A stretch of 64,000 bases of DNA from Porticoccaceae bacterium (lineage in GTDB: Bacteria > Pseudomonadota > Gammaproteobacteria > Pseudomonadales > Porticoccaceae): contig JAQXEN010000044.1 of the NCBI GenBank assembly GCA_029250825.1, positions 1 to 64,000 on the forward strand. Direction: 5' to 3'. How positions within the stretch are numbered: position 1 is the stretch's first letter; each line of letters starts with the position of its first letter. Both the position numbers and the translations under genes were made by a program. Below, piece by piece: positions 51,904 to 63,208 of the stretch. The notes under the pieces are model-generated. The model searched no databases, was not told where the DNA came from, and saw only the letters and a program-made list of their open reading frames with translations.

Positions 51904-52673
51904 TGGACTTGCTGGTCTCTGAGATAGTTCAACGTTTTTACACGCTGCTCTGGCCAATGATCAGAGTCTCCGCTTTTTTGCTTGCCTCGCCATTTTTCTC
52001 CCTCCGTGCCGTCAGTGTTCGGGTCCGTGTTCTGCTCGCTGCGCTGTTGACGCTAATGGTCTATCCGCTAGTGGATTGGCCGATTATTGATCCTTTTTCA
52101 GCGCCAGGTCTGCGGGAAGTTTTTAATCAGGTATTGATTGGCGCCGTGATGGGCATGCTGCTGCAAATTGTCAATGCCGCACTGGTGGTTGGCGGTCAGG
52201 CGGTGTCGAGTGCGATGGGTTTGGGCATGGCCAATATGGTGGATCCTAACATGGGGAACGTTCCGGTAATCTCGCAATTTTTTATCGTTTGTTCCACATT
52301 AATTTTTATGGGAATGGGCGGCCATGTACTGGTTATCAGTCTTGTATTAGAGAGTTTTAAAACGTTGCCCATCGGGCAGATGCTCGCCCCCGACATGTTG
52401 ATGGCGGTATTGTTGCAGTGGAGTGCAATGATGTTTCTCGGCGCTCTGTTACTGTCGCTGCCGATAATGGTCAGTCTGCTATTTGTGAATATTGGTGTCG
52501 GTGTGATTACTCGGGCAGCACCGGCGCTGAATATTTTTGCAGTTGGATTTCCGGCAATGATTTTTGTTGGCATGGTGCTCTTGGCAACCTCAATGACAAG
52601 CATTGGCTATCGCATACAGTGGCTCTGGCAACAGTCCTTTGACGTTGTCGGCCAGGCCCTGGGGATTACCTGA
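51903..52673 (+). CDS. fliR: Flagellar biosynthetic protein FliR
   Basis: LWPMIRVSAFLLASPFFS; GVITRAAPALNIFAVGFP. Confidence 0.97.
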   Translation: MDLLVSEIVQRFYTLLWPMIRVSAFLLASPFFSLRAVSVRVRVLLAALLTLMVYPLVDWPIIDPFSAPGLREVFNQVLIGAVMGMLLQIVNAALVVGGQAVSSAMGLGMANMVDPNMGNVPVISQFFIVCSTLIFMGMGGHVLVISLVLESFKTLPIGQMLAPDMLMAVLLQWSAMMFLGALLLSLPIMVSLLFVNIGVGVITRAAPALNIFAVGFPAMIFVGMVLLATSMTSIGYRIQWLWQQSFDVVGQALGIT

Positions 52674-53821
52674 TGGCAGAAAAAGACAGCAGCGAAGAGC
52701 GGGAAGAAGAACCCACCGCAAAGCGCCTCCAAAAGGCCCGTGACGACGGCCAGGTAGCGCGCTCTCAGGAACTCTCTGTGGCCGCGATGATGATTGGTGT
52801 GGCATTCTTTCTATATCTGTTTGGCGGTTATTTTATCGCCGCTCTATCCCGAGTCTTTGCCTCCGGATTTACCTTTGATCGCAAAGCCGTATTTGATGAT
52901 TCCCTGTTAGTGCCGGCCTTTGGCATTCAGGCATTCGACAGTTTTATGATCGTGGTGCCGATTTTTGTCTTGGCGGTGATTATTGCATTTGCCGCCGCCG
53001 GCGCTATGGGCGGCTATATTTTTTCGCTTAAATCAATCGCCCCAAAACCCAGCAAACTAAATCCCTTGTCAGGTCTCAAACGCATGTTTGGCATGAAGGC
53101 CGTGGTGGATCTGAGCAAGGCACTGAGCAAGTTCGTACTAATCGCTCTGGTGCTATATCTGGTGGTCAGCGATAACTTTTCGAGTCTGATCAAGTTGGGT
53201 TTTATGGATATAGAACCTGCTATGCAAGAAGCTGGGCGGATCATTGGTTTTGGCACTGTGCTGGTGACCCTGACTCTGATTGTGGCCGCCGCTATCGATA
53301 TTCCCTATCAGCTGTATACCTTCAATAAACAGATGAAAATGACCAAGCAGGAAATCAAGGATGAAATGAAAGACACCGAGGGACGTCCCGAGGTCAAGGC
53401 GCAAATTCGCCGCAAGCAGCGGGAAATTGCCAGTGGCATGATGATGTCAGCGATCGCCGATGCCGATGTGATTATTGTTAACCCGGAACATTTCGCCGTT
53501 GCCCTAAGTTATGACCCCTCTAAGGATGGCGCGCCGGTAATGGTCGCCAAGGGCGCAGACCTTCTAGCTCAGGCGATTCGTGAAAAGGCCAAAGAAGAGG
53601 GCGTGCCGATCTTCTCCTCTCCAGTGTTAGCGCGATCAATATTCTTTACCACCGAGATCAATCAGACCGTGCCAGAATCTCTGTACTATGCGGTGGCTCA
53701 GGTGATAGCCTACATCTTCAATTTAAATAGCTTCGAGCGCGGCGCTCAGACCGCGGTAAAACCGAATCCGGATGTGCCGGAAGATATGCGCTTTGATGCC
53801 AGAGGCAGACCCAGTGGCTGA
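52673..53821 (+). CDS. flhB: Flagellar biosynthetic protein FlhB
   Basis: EREEEPTAKRLQKARDDGQVARSQEL; VIIVNPEHFAVALSYDPSKDGAPVMVAKGAD. Confidence 0.98.
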   Translation: MAEKDSSEEREEEPTAKRLQKARDDGQVARSQELSVAAMMIGVAFFLYLFGGYFIAALSRVFASGFTFDRKAVFDDSLLVPAFGIQAFDSFMIVVPIFVLAVIIAFAAAGAMGGYIFSLKSIAPKPSKLNPLSGLKRMFGMKAVVDLSKALSKFVLIALVLYLVVSDNFSSLIKLGFMDIEPAMQEAGRIIGFGTVLVTLTLIVAAAIDIPYQLYTFNKQMKMTKQEIKDEMKDTEGRPEVKAQIRRKQREIASGMMMSAIADADVIIVNPEHFAVALSYDPSKDGAPVMVAKGADLLAQAIREKAKEEGVPIFSSPVLARSIFFTTEINQTVPESLYYAVAQVIAYIFNLNSFERGAQTAVKPNPDVPEDMRFDARGRPSG

Positions 53822-53935: not shown

Positions 53936-55450
53936 ATGACAGAAAATAAACAAGAACCGACTTTTGAATTGCACGACTGGTTTGATGGCGGCGATATTTT
54001 TTTCCGCAGCAAAGATAAAAAACGTCTTGCTCAAGCGGTAGTGGAGATTGTTGAAAACGATCTTAGCGTCGCCCTTATTGGTTCCAATGAAGTCATTCTC
54101 GATCACTACTGTCGCATGCTGGTGGCGCGTATGCGCGGTGTGGATGGTTATTCACTGGAAGTATTTTTACCTCTCACCACCGAGAGCCTGTTAACGCGTT
54201 TTAATGACATGCTCACTGAAATCACTATGGAGCAGGCGGTGCGACCGCCCTCGCCGGAACAGCCTGTGCGGCTGTTAGTGGTTAATGATGCACGCATGGT
54301 CAATGAAGAACAGTGGGCGCTTTTGGTCCGGCTGCTAGCAGATTTCCCCGGGGTTAATGCACGCCTGGTATTAGTGATCAATAAGTCCGGCTGGCCCGCA
54401 CATGAAAAACTATTAAATATTCTCGGCAAAAAAATGCATCGCTGGATGCTAGAAGTGCCGGCGGTTGAAGAGGCGCGAGAATTGCTCGATGCCGCAGTCG
54501 AGCGCGGCTATCAGACGGAGACCGAGGCACTACTCATCGATGCTGGCTTGGGCACCATTGTCGACAGGGGCCAGAGCAATGGCCTGGTGGAGGAGTTAGA
54601 TCCCGATCTGCCGGAGATGCCTGAGCTGGATGTGGATGTATTGCTCGGCAGTGACGACATTGATGAACCCGATACCGATAGTAAGTCTGAAGGCGATCAG
54701 CAATCGCAGCGAAAGGGCATTCGACTGTGGCCGGCAATTATGTTGCTCAGCATCAGCCTTGCGGTGTCGCTACTGGTGGTCTCTTGGCTCTATCCGGATG
54801 CTCTCCGAGCTGATGGGCAAGCTGCTCAGGGCAGCGCCGACAGTGAAACGGCCAGTTACACCACTGAATCAATTGCTATACCCAGTGAAGAGCAGCTCGA
54901 GGCGAAACGCTTAAAAGTGCAAGCTGAGGTTGATGCCGCTAGTGCCACTCCTGCAAAGACAGAGTCGCTAAATGCAGCGCCTGTTAGTGCAGAGGCTATT
55001 AATCGAGAGGAGGTTAATCAAGATGCTGTCAATGACGAGCCTGCTAATGACGAGCCTACTGCTGACGAGCTCAATAGCCAGCAAACTGAGACTCAAAAAC
55101 CGGTTGCGGAACTGCCTAGTGCCGCCACTCCCGCGCCCTCAGAACCCGCAGTGGTCAGCCCGCTGGAGCGTGCCTTAAAAAGTATCGCCGAGGCGCCGCG
55201 AAGTGCCTATTTTGTGCAGCATATTGTTCTCAGTACTGAGCTTGCTGCCAAGGGCTATATCGACCGCTATCCGGCATTAAGTGGCGCCAGTGTGGTGCCT
55301 GTGTTGCTCAGTCAAAAAAATGCTTATGCGGTTGTATCCGGGCCTTTTGACACCCGTTCTGCCGCGGCTCTGTTTACCCAAAATAGCAGCGTTCCCGATG
55401 ACTATTGGATCCGCGGAGCTGCCCAATTGCAGGCCATTTTGAGGCGTTAA
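53936..55450 (+). CDS. DamX-like protein: degenerate AAA-like N-domain, one TM, C-terminal SPOR-like domain
   Basis: N-domain with LVVNDARMVNEEQWALLVRLLADFP but P-loop position reads ALIGSNEVILDHY; TM IMLLSISLAVSLLVVSWLY; low-complexity linker; C-term SAYFVQHIVLST...NAYAVVSGPFDTRSAAALF. Confidence 0.6.
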   Translation: MTENKQEPTFELHDWFDGGDIFFRSKDKKRLAQAVVEIVENDLSVALIGSNEVILDHYCRMLVARMRGVDGYSLEVFLPLTTESLLTRFNDMLTEITMEQAVRPPSPEQPVRLLVVNDARMVNEEQWALLVRLLADFPGVNARLVLVINKSGWPAHEKLLNILGKKMHRWMLEVPAVEEARELLDAAVERGYQTETEALLIDAGLGTIVDRGQSNGLVEELDPDLPEMPELDVDVLLGSDDIDEPDTDSKSEGDQQSQRKGIRLWPAIMLLSISLAVSLLVVSWLYPDALRADGQAAQGSADSETASYTTESIAIPSEEQLEAKRLKVQAEVDAASATPAKTESLNAAPVSAEAINREEVNQDAVNDEPANDEPTADELNSQQTETQKPVAELPSAATPAPSEPAVVSPLERALKSIAEAPRSAYFVQHIVLSTELAAKGYIDRYPALSGASVVPVLLSQKNAYAVVSGPFDTRSAAALFTQNSSVPDDYWIRGAAQLQAILRR

Positions 55451-55452
55451 AT

Positions 55453-55779
55453 ATGACAGATACTTCTGGCGGCGAACTCTTTACACGGGATGGATCAGCT
55501 GGACAGGTGGCAGTTGACCGGGATGGAAATCTGGCTACTGGGGAGGCCCCAGAGGTGGTTTTTGTTCCTGTACTGGAAGCTCCTGAACGAATCCCCTTTG
55601 CCGCGCTTGCTGGGGACAGCGCTCATTTGGCTGCAGCGGATCCCAAACCTGCCAGACCGCCTTATGAGGGGAGTTTTAGTAGCCGCATCGCTAAAGTTAA
55701 GCGTCAAACTGCCGATAACTCTAAACAGATAAAGAAACTTAATTTTGCTGATCAAAAAGACTTAGCGGATCTGTTATGA
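55453..55779 (+). CDS. Hypothetical protein
   Basis: ATG 55453 (8 nt after the preceding ORF) to stop overlapping the next ORF's start; operonic packing only. Confidence 0.5.
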   Translation: MTDTSGGELFTRDGSAGQVAVDRDGNLATGEAPEVVFVPVLEAPERIPFAALAGDSAHLAAADPKPARPPYEGSFSSRIAKVKRQTADNSKQIKKLNFADQKDLADLL

Positions 55780-56747
55780 GTGACAAAAAACCTGAAAACA
55801 CAGTGGACGATGAGTCTGTAAAAGATGCAGTGGCAGAGGCTCCGGCTGCGGAGCTGGAAGAGGTTGAAGTAGAGGAGTCTGAATCTCAAGGGGATACCGC
55901 GGAGTCAGTTGAGAGTCTCGGCAACACCGCGGCGAAAGTCACTGAGAGCTTAGAGCAGCTGCTCCCCGGCGTACTGGAAATTGCCGAGGCCACCAATAAT
56001 GCCGCCGATGTTAGTATCAAATCATCCGCCGCCCTGAAAAAAGGTCTCGATCAAGTTGGCTCTCAGGTGGAGTCCTTAAACGCTGCCAGTGAAAAAAGCG
56101 CTGTGCTTGCCAGTCGGGTGATGATCGGTGCGATTTCGGCGCTGGTAATTTCAGTTTTTCTCTATGGCTTTGTGGCCTTTCAACTGGCAGCGCGAGTGAC
56201 TCAGGTTGACTCAATGTTAGTGGCGGTGAGCAAGCGTGTTGTACAGATGAACAGTGCCCTTGAAACCTTTGAACAGTTGCGTTTTTCAATGAATAAGCTG
56301 TCCGCCAGTCAAGCGCAGTTTAGTGAGCGTCAAATGCTGTTGGTCGAGGCGGTGTCCCGCACCGAAGTCTCAGCCCGCGCACTGGCCACAGAAGTGCCTG
56401 ATCTGGCGGCCCAACAGGTGGGCTTAAAGACTGACGAGATTGTCAGTCAGGTGAGCAGTCTGGGGAAAGGTCTAGAAGGGCAGGGGGCGATTGTCGCGAA
56501 GCTGTCAGGAACAGTTAGCGCACTGGGTGAGCAGGTGAAATCCCTCCAAAGTCAGGTCGGCAACGTGAAACAACTTAACGCCGATGTGGAGGCCTTGATC
56601 GCTCTTGAGCGGGAGAACTATCTCGAAGTGTTGCAGCGGCAGGTTGATTTAGAAGAGGCCCGTCAGGCCGAGGGCAAGGCCGTAGAGCCAGAACCTGAGC
56701 CGGTACCTTCGGTTGTTGTATTCCCCTTTATCTCGGTTAAGCCCTAG
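55776..56747 (+). CDS. Hypothetical protein: acidic N-terminus, coiled coil, one TM, long coiled coil
   Basis: TM VMIGAISALVISVFLYGFVAFQLAA flanked by heptad-rich segments; 4-nt overlap with the upstream ORF. Confidence 0.65.
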   Translation: MSDKKPENTVDDESVKDAVAEAPAAELEEVEVEESESQGDTAESVESLGNTAAKVTESLEQLLPGVLEIAEATNNAADVSIKSSAALKKGLDQVGSQVESLNAASEKSAVLASRVMIGAISALVISVFLYGFVAFQLAARVTQVDSMLVAVSKRVVQMNSALETFEQLRFSMNKLSASQAQFSERQMLLVEAVSRTEVSARALATEVPDLAAQQVGLKTDEIVSQVSSLGKGLEGQGAIVAKLSGTVSALGEQVKSLQSQVGNVKQLNADVEALIALERENYLEVLQRQVDLEEARQAEGKAVEPEPEPVPSVVVFPFISVKP

Positions 56748-56776
56748 CGCTGCAGGCAGAGATTCTGCTGGCGCTA
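56745..56776. terminator. Imperfect hairpin between convergent flagellar operons
   Basis: TAGCGC...CAGGCAGA-GATT-CTGCTG..GCGCTA; no clear T-tract. Confidence 0.35.
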
Positions 56777-56855
56777 TACTGGCTACTTATGGAGTGCTGT
56801 GCTGTCCGAGCCTCTAGCGCCAGGCGCCTCTCTTTCAACCCGATAGGAAAGCGTT

Positions 56856-57500
56856 CTAGATTGGCTCTGCAGGGTCTTCGTTCTGCCCTGGCAGAGTTTC
56901 CTCTAGGAGTGTATCGGCACTTGGCACCGCCGCCGCGGGCAATGCCGGTAGCAGTCTTTCCGAAAATGCCTGCTTGATTGTCAGGCCGGCCCGGGAAAAC
57001 AGTGAGCTGGCCGCCTCATCGAGGGTGACGTGCAAGCGAGTGTTAGCCAGATCATCAGCTCCCACTGATTCGTGCCCCGCGGTATAAATCGCTGCCACAT
57101 ACTGTGGCGGGATCCATGAGGCCACGGAACCGCGCAGGGTGCTAATTTCCAGAGGATTGCCCGGTAAATCGATACTCTTGCCCGCTGTGCCATCTTTTTT
57201 GCCGAGCTTAAATAGAGATTCGATATGGTTTTGCAATATAAACTCAAAACGGCTCTTTAGGGCCATTACATCACCCTCTTCAAAGCCCTCGGGCAGTGTT
57301 CCTGACATTGCATCCCAGAGTACATTTCCCGACAGGCCGAGAAAGCCGTTGTCTGCCACTGCCCCGGTAAATGGAGCGCGGTTATTGTTGGCCTGAATTG
57401 ACAGTGACTCTAGGCGTTTAACACGGTCGATCAAATAGACCATAAGAATGATTGCGACCACGCTGCCGAAAAGTACGGCGAGTAATAAAATCGTTGCCAT
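56856..57500 (-). CDS. Hypothetical protein with N-terminal TM anchor
   Basis: MATILLLAVLFGSVVAIILMVYLIDRVKRLE; downstream of and co-oriented with fliA. Confidence 0.65.
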   Translation of the reverse strand: MATILLLAVLFGSVVAIILMVYLIDRVKRLESLSIQANNNRAPFTGAVADNGFLGLSGNVLWDAMSGTLPEGFEEGDVMALKSRFEFILQNHIESLFKLGKKDGTAGKSIDLPGNPLEISTLRGSVASWIPPQYVAAIYTAGHESVGADDLANTRLHVTLDEAASSLFSRAGLTIKQAFSERLLPALPAAAVPSADTLLEETLPGQNEDPAEPI

Positions 57501-57534
57501 AATATTTACCTACTTGTAACGGGTGGAGGTCGGG

Positions 57535-58071
57535 TTAGCTATTCTCGGATTCGCCATCTTCAGCATCAGCCTCGGTATCAATGTCATTATCAGCATCTTC
57601 AAGCTCATCGCGGAGAAACTGTACCGCGACAAATGGCTCCTCAAGACCCAGATCCAAACTGACTCTATCCGCCAGTTCCTGAGCCAGCTTAAGGGTTTCG
57701 GAGGGACCGACTGTCGCCGTCTGATACAGATTGCCAAGGGCATACATCTCCTTGGCAAAATCAGCGGGCACATAGGTGTACACACTGTCAGTCTTGGTCT
57801 TAACAATCTGAAAGGGTTTTGGATCTGGCATCTCTGGTGCTTCATTGCCATTTGTCAGCGCCGTTAAGCAAGCTTCCTGATAGGCCTCTGACTGCTTTGC
57901 ACCCTCGATAAAAACCTTGTCCAAATGTGCTCTAGAGCGCCCGCCAATAAGCGCTTTAAAAATCCGTGCCTCCCGGGACAGACCCGAGAGTTTGCTGGCC
58001 TTATAGTAGGAGGCCTTGGCACTTTCCATCGCTTTTTTTGCAGCGCGGTTTTTCAATAGGGAGATAACCAT
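57535..58071 (-). CDS. Hypothetical protein, soluble, acidic C-terminus
   Basis: 178 aa ORF 17 nt downstream of fliA, co-oriented. Confidence 0.65.
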   Translation of the reverse strand: MVISLLKNRAAKKAMESAKASYYKASKLSGLSREARIFKALIGGRSRAHLDKVFIEGAKQSEAYQEACLTALTNGNEAPEMPDPKPFQIVKTKTDSVYTYVPADFAKEMYALGNLYQTATVGPSETLKLAQELADRVSLDLGLEEPFVAVQFLRDELEDADNDIDTEADAEDGESENS

Positions 58072-58088
58072 AATTGAACCCCAATTAT

Positions 58089-58811
58089 TTAGTCGGTGAC
58101 ATGGTCATGCATCTGCACTCGCAGCTTATTAACGCAGGCCGACAGAATTTGGCTCACTCTTGACTCACTGATTTCTAAGACGGCACCAATTTCTTTTAGG
58201 TTCATCTCTTCTACGTAATACAGCGATACAACGGTGCGGTCACGCTCGGGCAAATTGCCTATAGAGGCTGCAAGAGCGTCCATAAACTGCTCTTGAGCAA
58301 GTTCCTCTTGAGGTTCATTGCCCTGAGTTATTGGCAGGTCTACCGAATCTGGCAGCTGAGCTTCCAGTGACACCGTTTGAAAGCGATGAGCATGGGTGCG
58401 CTCATTCTGGAAGGTGTCTGCATCTTTGCCCATAAAGTCGGCTAGCTCACCCTGACTGGGCGCGCGACCCAGTTCCCCGGTCAAGGCTGCGCTGGCTTCG
58501 TTGTGGTCGCGAATACTGACGATCGCCGAGCGCGGCAGATAAGACATCTTGCGCACCTGATCTAGAATCGCTCCGCGAATACGGTTTTTGGCAAACACTT
58601 CAAAATCCACGCCCTTTGAGGCATCGAAAGATTTATCCGCTTCAATAAGACCAATCATGCCCACTTGAATAAGCTCTTCGAGTTCCATAAAGGCGGGTAG
58701 ACGACCCTTGAGGTGCAGAGCAACGCGCTTAACCAAGCCGATATAATCTACCAGCGAAGTGCTTGGCTGATCGGCGTTTTGAATCTCTTCGTAAGCTCTG
58801 GCGTCAGACAT
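58089..58811 (-). CDS. fliA: RNA polymerase sigma-28 factor FliA
   Basis: LVDYIGLVKRVALHLKGRLPAFMELEELIQVGMIGLIEA; LPERDRTVVSLYYVEEMNLKEIGAVLEISESRVSQI. Confidence 0.98.
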   Translation of the reverse strand: MSDARAYEEIQNADQPSTSLVDYIGLVKRVALHLKGRLPAFMELEELIQVGMIGLIEADKSFDASKGVDFEVFAKNRIRGAILDQVRKMSYLPRSAIVSIRDHNEASAALTGELGRAPSQGELADFMGKDADTFQNERTHAHRFQTVSLEAQLPDSVDLPITQGNEPQEELAQEQFMDALAASIGNLPERDRTVVSLYYVEEMNLKEIGAVLEISESRVSQILSACVNKLRVQMHDHVTD

Positions 58812-58813
58812 GG

Positions 58814-59641
58814 TTAAGAGGCCTTTGCTGCCATTTGTGCAGCGACACGCTCGACAAAAAATTGAATATTTCCATTCAGTGGAACATTCGGCTCGAGCTG
58901 CATAACTTTCTTTGCCAGCGCACTAAAGTCCCGTGCGGCAACTGACGCTGGAGAGTAATTGATCAGCGGCTGCGAGGCTTTCATGGCCTGAGTAACCATG
59001 CTGTCGGCACTGATTGAGTGCAGATATTTAATCTGCCCATCGAGAAAATTTTGCACCACAGTATTGATGCTGGTGTAGAGTCGCTCGCCCTCGCGCTGGG
59101 ATTCAACGCCATTGGGGACTAAGTGAATTCGATCGAGATTATATTCCTGCATCATTACCTTGATGGTGCTGTAGGCGTCGGCGATGGAATAGGGTTCATT
59201 TTTGACCACAACAATGCGGTGTTGGCAGGCGCTCATAAACGCCATAACAGCGTCAGATAGGCCAGCGGCGACATCGACAATCAAATAGTCGAGATCGTCT
59301 TCGAGTTCGGAAAATACCTGAATGATGCCCGCAGTCTCCTGTGGACTGAGAGCTGCCATGCGCTGAATACCGCTGGCACCAGGCACTAACTTCACCCCAG
59401 AGGGCCCTTCGACAATCACTTCGCTGAGGGTTTTTTCACCGGAGATAACATGGCTAAAATTAAAGGGCGCGCGAATACCTAGGGCTAACTGAGCATTAGC
59501 CAGTCCCAAGTCAGCGTCAAAAATCATCACCTTTTTGCCGAGCGAAGCTAGTTTAACCGCAAGGTTGATGGAGATTGTCGTCTTACCGACACCACCTTTG
59601 CCGCTGGCCACTCCGATAATTTGTGTAACCGGTTTATCCAT
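58814..59641 (-). CDS. flhG: Flagellar number regulator FlhG/FleN (MinD-like ATPase)
   Basis: IGVASGKGGVGKTTISINLAVKLASLGKKVMIFDADLGLANAQLALGI. Confidence 0.95.
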   Translation of the reverse strand: MDKPVTQIIGVASGKGGVGKTTISINLAVKLASLGKKVMIFDADLGLANAQLALGIRAPFNFSHVISGEKTLSEVIVEGPSGVKLVPGASGIQRMAALSPQETAGIIQVFSELEDDLDYLIVDVAAGLSDAVMAFMSACQHRIVVVKNEPYSIADAYSTIKVMMQEYNLDRIHLVPNGVESQREGERLYTSINTVVQNFLDGQIKYLHSISADSMVTQAMKASQPLINYSPASVAARDFSALAKKVMQLEPNVPLNGNIQFFVERVAAQMAAKAS

Positions 59642-59773: not shown

Positions 59774-61072
59774 TCAAACTAATTGAATCGGCAGTTGCGA
59801 AAGAGCTTGCTCCGCTAGCTTAAATCCGTCTACAGGCACTGCTCTGTCGATGATGTTGGGTTCTGCGCCGGTCACAGATAGGGGGATAGCATGCTGTAGC
59901 AGCAGGTAGATAATTGCCCAGGGGTGGGCCTCTTTATCGAAGCGTGAAAGCATTACTGAATCCCACTGCACCGCGTCACTATTGAGCTGTCGTTTGGCTG
60001 AGGACTCCGATGCGTCTGCAGCCAATACCAAGTGTTTTTGCGCCTCTGGAAGTGCTGAGCAAAGGCTATCAATATGGCTTTGAACACTGACGCCCGAGGT
60101 GTCGATAAGAATTAATTTTCTGGCGCTCATTTCGCCGATAAGCTGCATCAGCATCTCAATGGAATTGGCTCGAAAAGTATCCACCCCGGCCTGTGAGCCG
60201 ATCAGTTGAGTTTGCGCCCAGGCGCCAATTCGGGCGTCATTAAAACTGATTAACGCGACTTCATTTTCGCCGTATTGCTGAGCCATCTGATTGGCCAGTC
60301 GGCCCGTCATCATAGTCTTCCCCGCACCACAGCTGCCGCCAATAATATGCACACCAGTGAGGTTATTGAGTAAATCAATATGCTCGATCTCATCGGCGAT
60401 CGCAGTGCTAATCTGTTCGATGGCATCGTTTATTGAGGAGCTTTGGTTGATCACTTCAATAACCGACTCACGCATTCCTAGGGGCATGCCGCTCTCATTG
60501 AAGGCTTCCACCAGAGGGCCCATTTCTTCGTTGACCGCGAGCCTGCCAGTCCAGGAGTCTTTGTGCTGGGAGAGTTTGAACTCATCGCGCATCACACTGA
60601 GTTCTTGTTTCACCAGGTCGACAATTTCTCGTGCTTTCAAATACTCTCTGTCTGCAGCTTCTTTGTAGTTCTCACCGTTCAGCGCTTTGCTGACGCTGTC
60701 CAGCGGGGCTGCCACCAATGGGTCTAGTGCCGGCATCTCTAGAGTTGCCTGAGGAGGGCTAGTGGGTTCAAAAGCCGAGCCGAAAATAATATCACTATGG
60801 CTTGCTGCAGAGGCCGCTGGCTGTTCGGTTTGTCCCTGTATATGAGCTTCGATCAGCTCACCAAATTTGGTCGCATCATGTGCTTCTGCAAGAGCTTCTG
60901 GCGTCTTGATGAGAGCGGCTTTGACCTCAGATACAAGATCGAGCGCAACAATGATCTCAGTTTGACCCTTTACTCTGTTATTGGCGACAATCATTGCATC
61001 TTCACCGTAAAGGTTAAAAACTTGTTCCATTGCGCTGCGTGTATCGCGAGCCAAAATTCGTTGTAGTTCCAT
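59774..61072 (-). CDS. flhF: Flagellar biosynthesis GTPase FlhF, divergent G domain
   Basis: N-terminal B domain (DTRSAMEQVFNLYGEDAMIVANNRV); GGSCGAGKTMMTGRLA; LILIDTSGVS; between flhA and flhG. Confidence 0.9.
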   Translation of the reverse strand: MELQRILARDTRSAMEQVFNLYGEDAMIVANNRVKGQTEIIVALDLVSEVKAALIKTPEALAEAHDATKFGELIEAHIQGQTEQPAASAASHSDIIFGSAFEPTSPPQATLEMPALDPLVAAPLDSVSKALNGENYKEAADREYLKAREIVDLVKQELSVMRDEFKLSQHKDSWTGRLAVNEEMGPLVEAFNESGMPLGMRESVIEVINQSSSINDAIEQISTAIADEIEHIDLLNNLTGVHIIGGSCGAGKTMMTGRLANQMAQQYGENEVALISFNDARIGAWAQTQLIGSQAGVDTFRANSIEMLMQLIGEMSARKLILIDTSGVSVQSHIDSLCSALPEAQKHLVLAADASESSAKRQLNSDAVQWDSVMLSRFDKEAHPWAIIYLLLQHAIPLSVTGAEPNIIDRAVPVDGFKLAEQALSQLPIQLV

Positions 61073-61102: not shown

Positions 61103-63208
61103 TTAATTCTGTTCATCGATGCTAACTGTTGCCACGACTTTGACGGATTGATCTTCCGGTATCTCGCTGTAGGAGAGCACTGTCAGATCGGCCAGTCTGT
61201 GGCGGATTATTTTTGATAGCCAGGGACGAATTCCCGGCGACACTACCAGCACTGCTGGCATGCCTTGATTTTCAACTTCCTGTGTATTTTCGGCGAGGGC
61301 TTTAAACAACCCTTCAGCAAGCTTTGGCTCGATTATCAAACCTTGATTGGTGCTGCTCTGCTGCAATACGTTGTGCAGCATTTGTTCTAGGGAGGGCTCC
61401 AGTGTGATCACTGGCAAGCTGTCGTTAATTTCAACCAGTCCCTGAACAATCATGCGCCCCAGTCGCGGTCTAACTGCTGCGGTTAATTCATCGGCGTCTT
61501 GGGTGCGGGCGCTCTCGGTGGATAGCACTTCAATAATGGTGCGCATATCTCGCACTGAGACAGACTCATCGAGAATGTTCTGCAATACCTTAGTAATGGT
61601 TGCCAGAGGCAGTTTGCCCGGCACTAGATCCTCCACCAGTTTCGGCGCTCGCGCGGCGACTTTGTCTAGTAACTGCTGGCTTTCATCATGACTGAGCAGC
61701 TCGGAGGAATTGCCCCGCAGTAATGTGTTGAGGTGAGTGGCAATGGCGGTGGCGGAGTCGACAACGGTATAGCCAAGTGTCCGCGCATAGTCACGCTGGC
61801 TGGGGTCGATCCACACGGCGTCTAAGCCAAAGGCTGGCTCTTTGGTGGCGGTGCCCTCTAACTGGCCGTGTACCTGACCGGGATTAATCGCCATTTCACG
61901 ACCGACCTTGATCTCGCCCTTGCCGCGTACAACACCGTTCATGACGATATGGTAAACATCCGGAGCCAGGTCTAAGTTGTCGCGAATACGGATCGGTTGA
62001 ATCAAAAAGCCCAGTTCCGCTGAGAGTTTTTTGCGCACACCTTTCACTCTGGTGAGCAGTTGGCCGCCGGCATCAGCGTTGACCAGTGGAATAAGTCCGT
62101 AGCCGATATCCAGTCCCACCAGATCAACTTGATCCACATCATCCCAACCAAGTTCTTCGGTATTGGCTTTGGCGGAGTCACTGGAGGCTGCATCCAGAGT
62201 GACAGTCAATTCACGGCGCTGACTACTCTGCGCGAGGAAATAACCCAGTACTCCCGAGCCGATTCCGAGGCTTAAAAATATTAGATGTGGCATGCCCGGT
62301 ACCAGCCCGAGCAGAATCAAAATACCCGCGGCAACAAAAAAGGCCATGGGGTTATTGAGCTGGCTCTTGGCCTGTTCAGACATAGATTCAGACGTGGTTA
62401 CACGGGTAACAATAATCGCTGTGGCGAGGGATAGCAGCAGTGATGGAATCTGTGCCACCAGACCATCACCGATGGTGAGCAGTACATAGATGCGGCCGGC
62501 TTCGGAGAAGCTCAGATCATGCTGTGAGATACCAATAATCAAACCGCCGACAATATTGATAATCAGAATCAGCAGGCCGGCGATAGCATCACCGCGAACA
62601 AACTTTGAGGCACCATCCATAGAGCCAAAGAAATCTGACTCTTGGGTAATTTCTTCACGGCGAAACTTAGCCGTTTCCTGGTCGATCACACCGGCGTTTA
62701 AGTCGGCATCAATGGCCATTTGCTTGCCGGGCATGGCGTCTAGGGTAAAGCGAGCGATTACCTCGGAGACGCGGCCAGCACCTTTAGTGACAACGATAAA
62801 GTTAATGATCATCAGGATCGAAAAGATAATAAAGCCGACTAGATAGTTGCCGCCGATAACAAATTCGCCAAAGGCTTCAATAACCTTGCCTGCTGAGTCC
62901 GGCCCTTCATGGCCCTTGACCAGTACCAGTCGCGTTGAGGCAACATTGAGACCGAGGCGCAACATGGTGGCGAGCAGCAGAATCGAGGGGAATGATGAAA
63001 AGTCGAGAGGCTTAGAGCTGTTAATGGCGACCATAATGATCACCAGGCCAATAATAATATTAAAGGTGAACAAAAAATCTAATAAAAACGCTGGCAAGGG
63101 TAGGATCAGCATCGAAATAATCAGTAATACCAGCGCCGGAACACCCAGCGTGGACAGTTCGATTTTTGACAGATCCTGTCGTATGTTTGACAGTGTTGCA
63201 GAAGCCAT
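61103..63208 (-). CDS. flhA: Flagellar biosynthesis protein FlhA
   Basis: LDFLFTFNIIIGLVIIMVAINSSKPLDFSSFPSILLLATMLRLGLNVASTRLVL. Confidence 0.98.
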   Translation of the reverse strand: MASATLSNIRQDLSKIELSTLGVPALVLLIISMLILPLPAFLLDFLFTFNIIIGLVIIMVAINSSKPLDFSSFPSILLLATMLRLGLNVASTRLVLVKGHEGPDSAGKVIEAFGEFVIGGNYLVGFIIFSILMIINFIVVTKGAGRVSEVIARFTLDAMPGKQMAIDADLNAGVIDQETAKFRREEITQESDFFGSMDGASKFVRGDAIAGLLILIINIVGGLIIGISQHDLSFSEAGRIYVLLTIGDGLVAQIPSLLLSLATAIIVTRVTTSESMSEQAKSQLNNPMAFFVAAGILILLGLVPGMPHLIFLSLGIGSGVLGYFLAQSSQRRELTVTLDAASSDSAKANTEELGWDDVDQVDLVGLDIGYGLIPLVNADAGGQLLTRVKGVRKKLSAELGFLIQPIRIRDNLDLAPDVYHIVMNGVVRGKGEIKVGREMAINPGQVHGQLEGTATKEPAFGLDAVWIDPSQRDYARTLGYTVVDSATAIATHLNTLLRGNSSELLSHDESQQLLDKVAARAPKLVEDLVPGKLPLATITKVLQNILDESVSVRDMRTIIEVLSTESARTQDADELTAAVRPRLGRMIVQGLVEINDSLPVITLEPSLEQMLHNVLQQSSTNQGLIIEPKLAEGLFKALAENTQEVENQGMPAVLVVSPGIRPWLSKIIRHRLADLTVLSYSEIPEDQSVKVVATVSIDEQN

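What the first reader, a model, noticed from the sequence alone, without database searches (positions are those of the whole stretch)
53936..58071. Uncharacterised five-gene block between flhB and fliA; no che genes after fliA
In many polar-flagellated gammaproteobacteria flhB is followed by flhA-flhF-flhG-fliA-cheY-cheZ. Here flhA-flhF-flhG-fliA is inverted and convergent. Three ORFs follow flhB (DamX-like, 107 aa, coiled-coil TM protein) and two follow fliA (178 aa, 214 aa TM-anchored). Their tight packing with flagellar genes suggests a new flagellar accessory or placement module. This is the best candidate in the window for an undescribed system.
Basis: partly seen in the sequence, partly recalled or inferred. 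Interest (0 to 1): 0.7.

Follow-up and report, generated by a model that had tools for sequence, protein, structure and literature searches.

The report
Conserved unknown polar-flagellum gene block
Five unnamed genes beside the flagellum-placement genes of a small sea bacterium are real and conserved; two of them, a membrane protein and its soluble cousin of unknown fold, mark a separate, chemotaxis-free lineage of flagella that also occurs in distantly related freshwater bacteria, and they probably help decide where the flagellum is built.

Summary
In detail: flhB-P1-P2-P3 converges on P4-P5-fliA-flhG-flhF-flhA, with no che genes. The block is neither strain-specific nor one unit. P5 lies directly 3' of fliA, usually followed by P4, in Porticoccaceae/SAR92, Litorivicinaceae, two more gammaproteobacterial families and some Burkholderiales (Limnohabitans, Hydrogenophaga). 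P1-P2-P3 are more restricted. P4 (membrane-anchored) and P5 (soluble) are homologous to each other (hhalign 93%, E 3e-7; same predicted topology) and match nothing in Pfam, NCBIfam or PDB. All 24 FlhA from module loci form one 100/100 clade, apart from ordinary FlhA of the same families and from Cupriavidus; one genome carries both systems. FlhF of this clade falls below the FlhF family cut-off and has lost the GQxVPxD motif. FipA (DUF2802) and flagellar chemotaxis genes are missing from the module-only genomes examined. Best reading: a distinct, horizontally transferred polar-flagellum lineage in which P4-P5 serve a rewired FlhF/FlhG placement system, with P1 and P3 as envelope-spanning helpers. 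Conservation and lineage are shown; function is inferred. 'DamX-like' holds only for P1's C-terminal SPOR domain.

The parts
52673..53821 (+). flhB, end of the fli operon that precedes P1
   Evidence: ORF and synteny with flhB of relatives
53936..55450 (+). P1, 504 aa: conserved cytoplasmic N-terminal domain without P-loop, one TM, low-complexity linker, C-terminal SPOR domain
   Evidence: (SPOR in 18 of 20 homologues)
55453..55779 (+). P2, about 108 aa, weakly conserved; C-terminal motif RIAKVKRxTAD
55776..56747 (+). P3, 323 aa: acidic N-terminus, one TM, long coiled coil ending in a conserved ALxxLERExYLExLQ stretch
56856..57500 (-). P4, 214 aa: N-terminal TM helix and cytoplasmic domain homologous to P5
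57535..58071 (-). P5, 178 aa: soluble, helix / beta hairpin / helix / helix, no known fold; directly 3' of fliA
58089..58811 (-). fliA (sigma-28)
   Evidence: NCBIfam FliA over cut-off
58814..59641 (-). flhG (MinD-like)
59774..61072 (-). flhF, divergent: 106.7 bits against a cut-off of 174.15; G4 and G5 motifs altered
61103..63208 (-). flhA, member of the module clade of FlhA

Best explanation
The block belongs to a distinct, horizontally transferred lineage of polar-type flagellar systems. Its core novelty is the pair P5-P4: a soluble and a membrane-anchored protein that share one domain and are encoded at the end of the flhA-flhF-flhG-fliA operon. I infer that they form a membrane-bound heteromer that recruits or regulates the divergent FlhF (with FlhG) at the site of flagellum assembly, the job FipA does in ordinary polar flagellates. 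I further infer that P1 (cytoplasmic domain, TM, periplasmic SPOR) and P3 (TM, periplasmic coiled coil) tie this complex to septal or polar peptidoglycan in the lineages that have them. Shown: conservation, gene order, P4/P5 homology, FlhF divergence, absence of FipA and flagellar che genes, clade membership. Inferred: the complex, its partner and its placement role.
For: P5 is directly 3' of fliA across four gammaproteobacterial families and Burkholderiales, with P4 next to it in most. P4 and P5 are homologous (controls 98, 99) with the same predicted topology. The module FlhA form one 100/100 clade, and G357 carries this system beside an ordinary one. FlhF of the clade is divergent. FipA is absent in 18 of 18 module-only genomes, as is flagellar-type CheA/CheW. 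P4 has the layout and gene position described for FipA (PMC11620751). P3 stays beside P4 through two rearrangements (f46 and f42).
Against: No functional data. The clade may have one origin, so the co-occurrences are not independent. P4 and P5 show no relation to DUF2802. FipA is also missing in 6 of 10 genomes with only an ordinary system. FimV/HubP is still present in most of these genomes, so another landmark exists. Burkholderiales loci lack P1-P3.
Confidence: 0.42

Rival explanations
1. P4/P5 are basal-body, C-ring or export-apparatus accessory proteins (assembly or motor function) rather than placement factors; P1/P3 are envelope scaffold parts of the same motor.
For: Constant linkage to core flagellar genes; P1 and P3 follow flhB, and both have TM and periplasmic parts; the cluster also carries flgP/flgT-like ring genes next to flhA.
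Against: P5-P4 sit in the flhF-flhG-fliA operon rather than with structural genes, and go with a divergent FlhF.
Confidence: 0.28
2. P5/P4 regulate the sigma factor FliA or late flagellar gene expression, being encoded right behind fliA.
For: P5 is the immediate 3' neighbour of fliA in nearly all mapped loci.
Against: FliA itself is ordinary (over the NCBIfam cut-off); P4 is membrane-anchored and has no DNA-binding or anti-sigma family match.
Confidence: 0.1
3. P1-P3 are an independent, cell-division or envelope set (P1 a DamX-type SPOR protein) that merely hitchhikes behind flhB; only P5-P4 are flagellar.
For: P1 matches DamX-like proteins over the SPOR domain; P1-P3 are missing from the Burkholderiales loci; a P3-like gene (E 1.7e-8) occurs in G133, which has an ordinary flagellar locus and no P5.
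Against: P1-P2-P3 stay behind flhB in Porticoccaceae and Litorivicinaceae, and P3 stays beside P4 through rearrangements. Strong P1 matches were found only in P5-positive genomes; others are weak and mostly SPOR-only.
Confidence: 0.15

Closest known systems
FipA (DUF2802, PF10975), FlhF-binding polar flagellum factor
   Same: P4 has an N-terminal TM and a cytoplasmic domain, is encoded behind the flhF-flhG-fliA operon, and occurs with flhF/flhG
   Different: No DUF2802 in P4 or P5; P4 has a soluble homologue P5 beside it; FlhF binding untested
DamX and other SPOR-domain proteins
   Same: P1 has cytoplasmic domain, TM, linker and C-terminal SPOR
   Different: N-terminal domain lacks a P-loop and is not clearly related to the DamX/ExeA AAA domain (6.6%); encoded behind flhB
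HubP/FimV polar landmark proteins
   Same: P1 and P3 are membrane proteins with periplasmic parts, as landmark proteins are
   Different: No LysM or FimV domain hit; FimV is encoded elsewhere
Ordinary gammaproteobacterial flhB-flhA-flhF-flhG-fliA(-che) cluster
   Same: Same core genes
   Different: flhA operon inverted relative to flhB, P genes between, separate FlhA clade, FlhF with altered G motifs, no che genes

Membership tests
FipA family (for P4) | Cytoplasmic DUF2802 domain | tested here: not met
   No PF10975 hit in P4/P5 or homologues; hhalign to two DUF2802 proteins 1.5% and 0.1%; no PF10975 match in G000
FipA family (for P4) | Single N-terminal TM, rest cytoplasmic | tested here: met
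   Hydrophobic N-terminal helix 2-40 in the model and sequence; topology itself not measured
FipA family (for P4) | Direct interaction with FlhF | not testable with these tools
   Needs two-hybrid or co-immunoprecipitation
FlhF, TIGR03499 (for flhF of this lineage) | Score over the curated cut-off of 174.15 bits | tested here: not met
   106.7 bits; 94.5-125.9 in seven further module loci and one unlisted
FlhF, TIGR03499 (for flhF of this lineage) | Gene position between flhA and flhG | tested here: met
SPOR / DamX (for P1) | C-terminal SPOR domain | tested here: met
   Over the cut-off in the genome search (22.1 bits), just below it in the protein scan (18.9 against 21); 18 of 20 homologues match
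SPOR / DamX (for P1) | N-terminal AAA-type domain related to DamX-like ATPases | tested here: inconclusive
   Collinear over 151 columns but 6.6% probability, E 0.0055; no P-loop
SPOR / DamX (for P1) | Septal localisation | not testable with these tools
   Needs microscopy
HubP/FimV (for P1 or P3) | Periplasmic LysM-like domain and C-terminal FimV/TPR domain | tested here: not met
   No such hit in P1 or P3; FimV encoded elsewhere in the genome

The most novel reading that the evidence does not exclude
P4-P5 define a new protein family of unknown fold that replaces FipA, and perhaps part of the GTP switch of FlhF, in a separate, chemotaxis-free lineage of polar flagella that moved between pelagic gamma- and betaproteobacteria.
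Probability: 0.33. Interest if true: 0.75.

Novelty: new variant of a known kind. Interest (0 to 1): 0.56.

Why it matters
How bacteria choose the place and number of flagella rests on FlhF/FlhG and a few known partners. A lineage that keeps flhF/flhG but has an FlhF with altered GTPase motifs, no FipA, no flagellar chemotaxis genes and two proteins of an undescribed family is a natural experiment on what the switch really needs. It occurs in planktonic sea and lake bacteria (SAR92 clade, Litorivicinaceae, Limnohabitans), and one genome (G357) carries it beside an ordinary system, so specificity could be tested directly.

Tried and rejected
1) Duplication within the genome: the second copy on C93 is about 94.7% identical to strain MOLA455, so contamination is likelier. 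2) Loss of the FlhG N-terminal 'DQA' motif as a hallmark: absent in all 51 scored module FlhG but also in 12 of 13 ordinary FlhG of the order (two of these keep an NQA variant), so not distinctive. 3) P1/P3 as replacement of a missing FimV/HubP: FimV_core is over its cut-off in 28 of 32 genomes, with or without the module. 4) P4 or P5 as diverged FipA: profile comparisons negative. 5) Known fold: Foldseek against PDB gave nothing for either model (best E 0.55 and 3.5). 6) Class-wide spread: of 369 class genomes only the window's own matched, so the module is rare. 7) Plasmid-borne copies of P5: none. 9) No open-access paper on this block was found; the FipA/FlhF papers read describe ordinary systems.

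Full report
What is there. The window is part of a 2.33-Mb draft genome (G000, contig C55) whose nearest named relatives are Porticoccaceae of the SAR92 clade, including MOLA455 and HTCC2207. A fli cluster ending in flhB on the + strand runs into P1, P2 and P3. On the - strand flhA-flhF-flhG-fliA runs into P5 and P4, so the two halves converge at about 56.8 kb. Spacing is tight: 17 nt from fliA to P5, 34 nt from P5 to P4, 2 nt from P1 to P2, a 4-nt overlap of P2 and P3, but 114 nt from flhB to P1. No che gene follows fliA.

Are the ORFs real. Each has an orthologue in the same order in MOLA455. dN/dS is 0.172 (P1), 0.091 (P3), 0.114 (P4) and 0.148 (P5), against 0.025-0.10 for flhA, flhG, fliA, flhB and flhF; synonymous sites are near saturation, so the values are approximate. 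The same assembly holds a second, syntenic copy on contig C93, but that contig is about 94.7% identical to MOLA455 over long stretches. It is most likely contamination and is used here only as a comparison sequence.

How widespread. A profile of P5 finds 27 of 394 genomes of the order (26 clear, one at E 1e-3) in four families: f1 (Porticoccaceae), f17 (Litorivicinaceae/Litoricola), f42 and f46. Of 369 genomes sampled across the class only the window's own matches. A scan of named genomes returned 54 loci: Porticoccaceae and SAR92, Litoricola/Litorivicinus, LSUCC0096, HIMB30, and also Burkholderiales (Limnohabitans 15K and G3-2, a Hydrogenophaga bin, Burkholderiaceae and Comamonadaceae bins).

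Gene order. In the mapped loci P5 is directly 3' of fliA, except at contig ends, in L126, and for a second P5-like gene of Litorivicinaceae. P4 follows P5 in f1, f17, f46 and Burkholderiales, where the order is flhA-flhF-flhG-fliA-P5-P4 and then usually fliS. P1-P2-P3 behind flhB occurs in Porticoccaceae and Litorivicinaceae. In f46 P3 remains convergent with P4 although flhB is elsewhere (L027). In f42 (L028) the order is flhB, a P1-like gene, P3, P4, while P5 stays with fliA in another contig of the same genome (L065). So P5-P4 is the portable core, P1-P3 are lineage-restricted, and two rearrangements that keep P3 beside P4 tie the halves together. In all 14 ordinary loci of the order fetched for comparison (L151-L164) flhB and flhA lie on the same strand and none of the five genes was found.

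What the proteins are. P2, P4 and P5 have no Pfam or NCBIfam match, and P3 only coiled-coil noise. Scanning 42 P4 and 45 P5 homologues gives nothing consistent. AlphaFold2 models are confident (P5 pLDDT 89, P4 86.5) and share the order long helix, beta hairpin, helix, helix. hhalign joins the two families (93%, E 3.4e-7, 109 columns), whereas control comparisons give under 1%. So P4 is a membrane-anchored relative of P5. Neither has a credible PDB sequence or fold match. P1 has a SPOR domain at its C-terminus (18 of 20 homologues; profile match to DamX-like proteins). Its conserved N-terminal domain aligns only weakly with DamX/ExeA AAA domains and has no P-loop. P3 is a TM protein with a long coiled coil.

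A separate flagellar lineage. In a tree of 42 FlhA all 24 from module loci form one group with 100/100 support, and the 18 others lie outside it. Burkholderiales module FlhA sit in this group, away from Cupriavidus FlhA. Ordinary Porticoccaceae FlhA (G109, G183, G244, G303) sit with the ordinary ones. Genome G357 has one FlhA in each group. This supports transfer of the whole system between orders, though the betaproteobacterial sample is small and some branches are long.

FlhF and other partners. FlhF is below the curated TIGR03499 cut-off of 174 bits in all nine module loci tested (94.5-126 bits, one unlisted), against 234 for an ordinary neighbour. Among 26 clear P5 genomes only G357 has an FlhF of ordinary strength (E 4.5e-60), and it also holds a second, ordinary flhA-flhF-flhG-fliA locus on another contig. 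The GQxVPxD stretch (G5; Q or P at the second place) is recognisable in 16 of 16 ordinary FlhF and in none of 12 module FlhF; in Porticoccaceae the G4 motif TKxD reads SRxD or SRxE. FipA (DUF2802) is absent from 18 of 18 module-only genomes and present in 4 of 10 genomes with only an ordinary system, and in G357, which has both. No CheA-sized CheW frame is found in the 18; the CheW hits in G000, G161, G224 and G320 have the lengths of a Pil-Chp twitching set, and G264 has one short frame. Because the module group may have a single origin, these associations are not independent, and the Fisher tests on them overstate the evidence.

How it most likely works. FipA is a membrane protein encoded behind the flhA-flhF-flhG-fliA-che operon that binds FlhF at the membrane and promotes polar flagellum formation (PMC11620751); a review summarises FipA and HubP/FimV as recruiters of FlhF (PMC12826062). 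P4 has the same layout and genomic position without the same domain. The simplest reading is that the P4-P5 pair does the equivalent job for the diverged FlhF, with P1 and P3 linking to the cell wall. The main rival is a role in assembly or the motor. Nothing here tests function directly.

Verdict. Novelty: a new accessory protein family within a known kind of machine, in a distinct flagellar lineage that I did not find described in the open-access papers searched.

Noticed in passing
G000 contig C93 (L019-L021), whole 48 kb: Syntenic second flagellar contig in the same assembly, about 94.7% identical to strain MOLA455: probable contamination of the draft genome.
   Followed up: yes
L070:9843-11187, L071:9788-11176, L072:8744-10963, L073:10043-11458: Litorivicinaceae carry a second P5-like gene beside an unknown protein of about 275 aa (in L072 with a second, similar copy on its other side), often near motAB, fliS and the flrA/C-like genes.
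   Followed up: partly
L126:9953-10507 (Betaproteobacteria MOLA814): A P5 homologue with no recognised flagellar gene within 10 kb.
   Followed up: no
L066 (G357:C52) and L141 (G357:C32): One genome carries two flagellar gene sets, one of the module lineage and one ordinary with FipA nearby; in the ordinary one flhG is split into two frames.
   Followed up: partly
L022:3552-6917 (G000:C55:63552-66917, just beyond the window): flgP-like and flgT-like genes, a LysM-type protein and a second FliK-like gene follow flhA; this order is conserved in most gammaproteobacterial module loci.
   Followed up: partly
G000:C55:143953-154968: CheW-domain proteins of 185, 1977 and 164 aa, the lengths of a Pil-Chp twitching set; the same set is found in G390, a congener without P5.
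   Followed up: no
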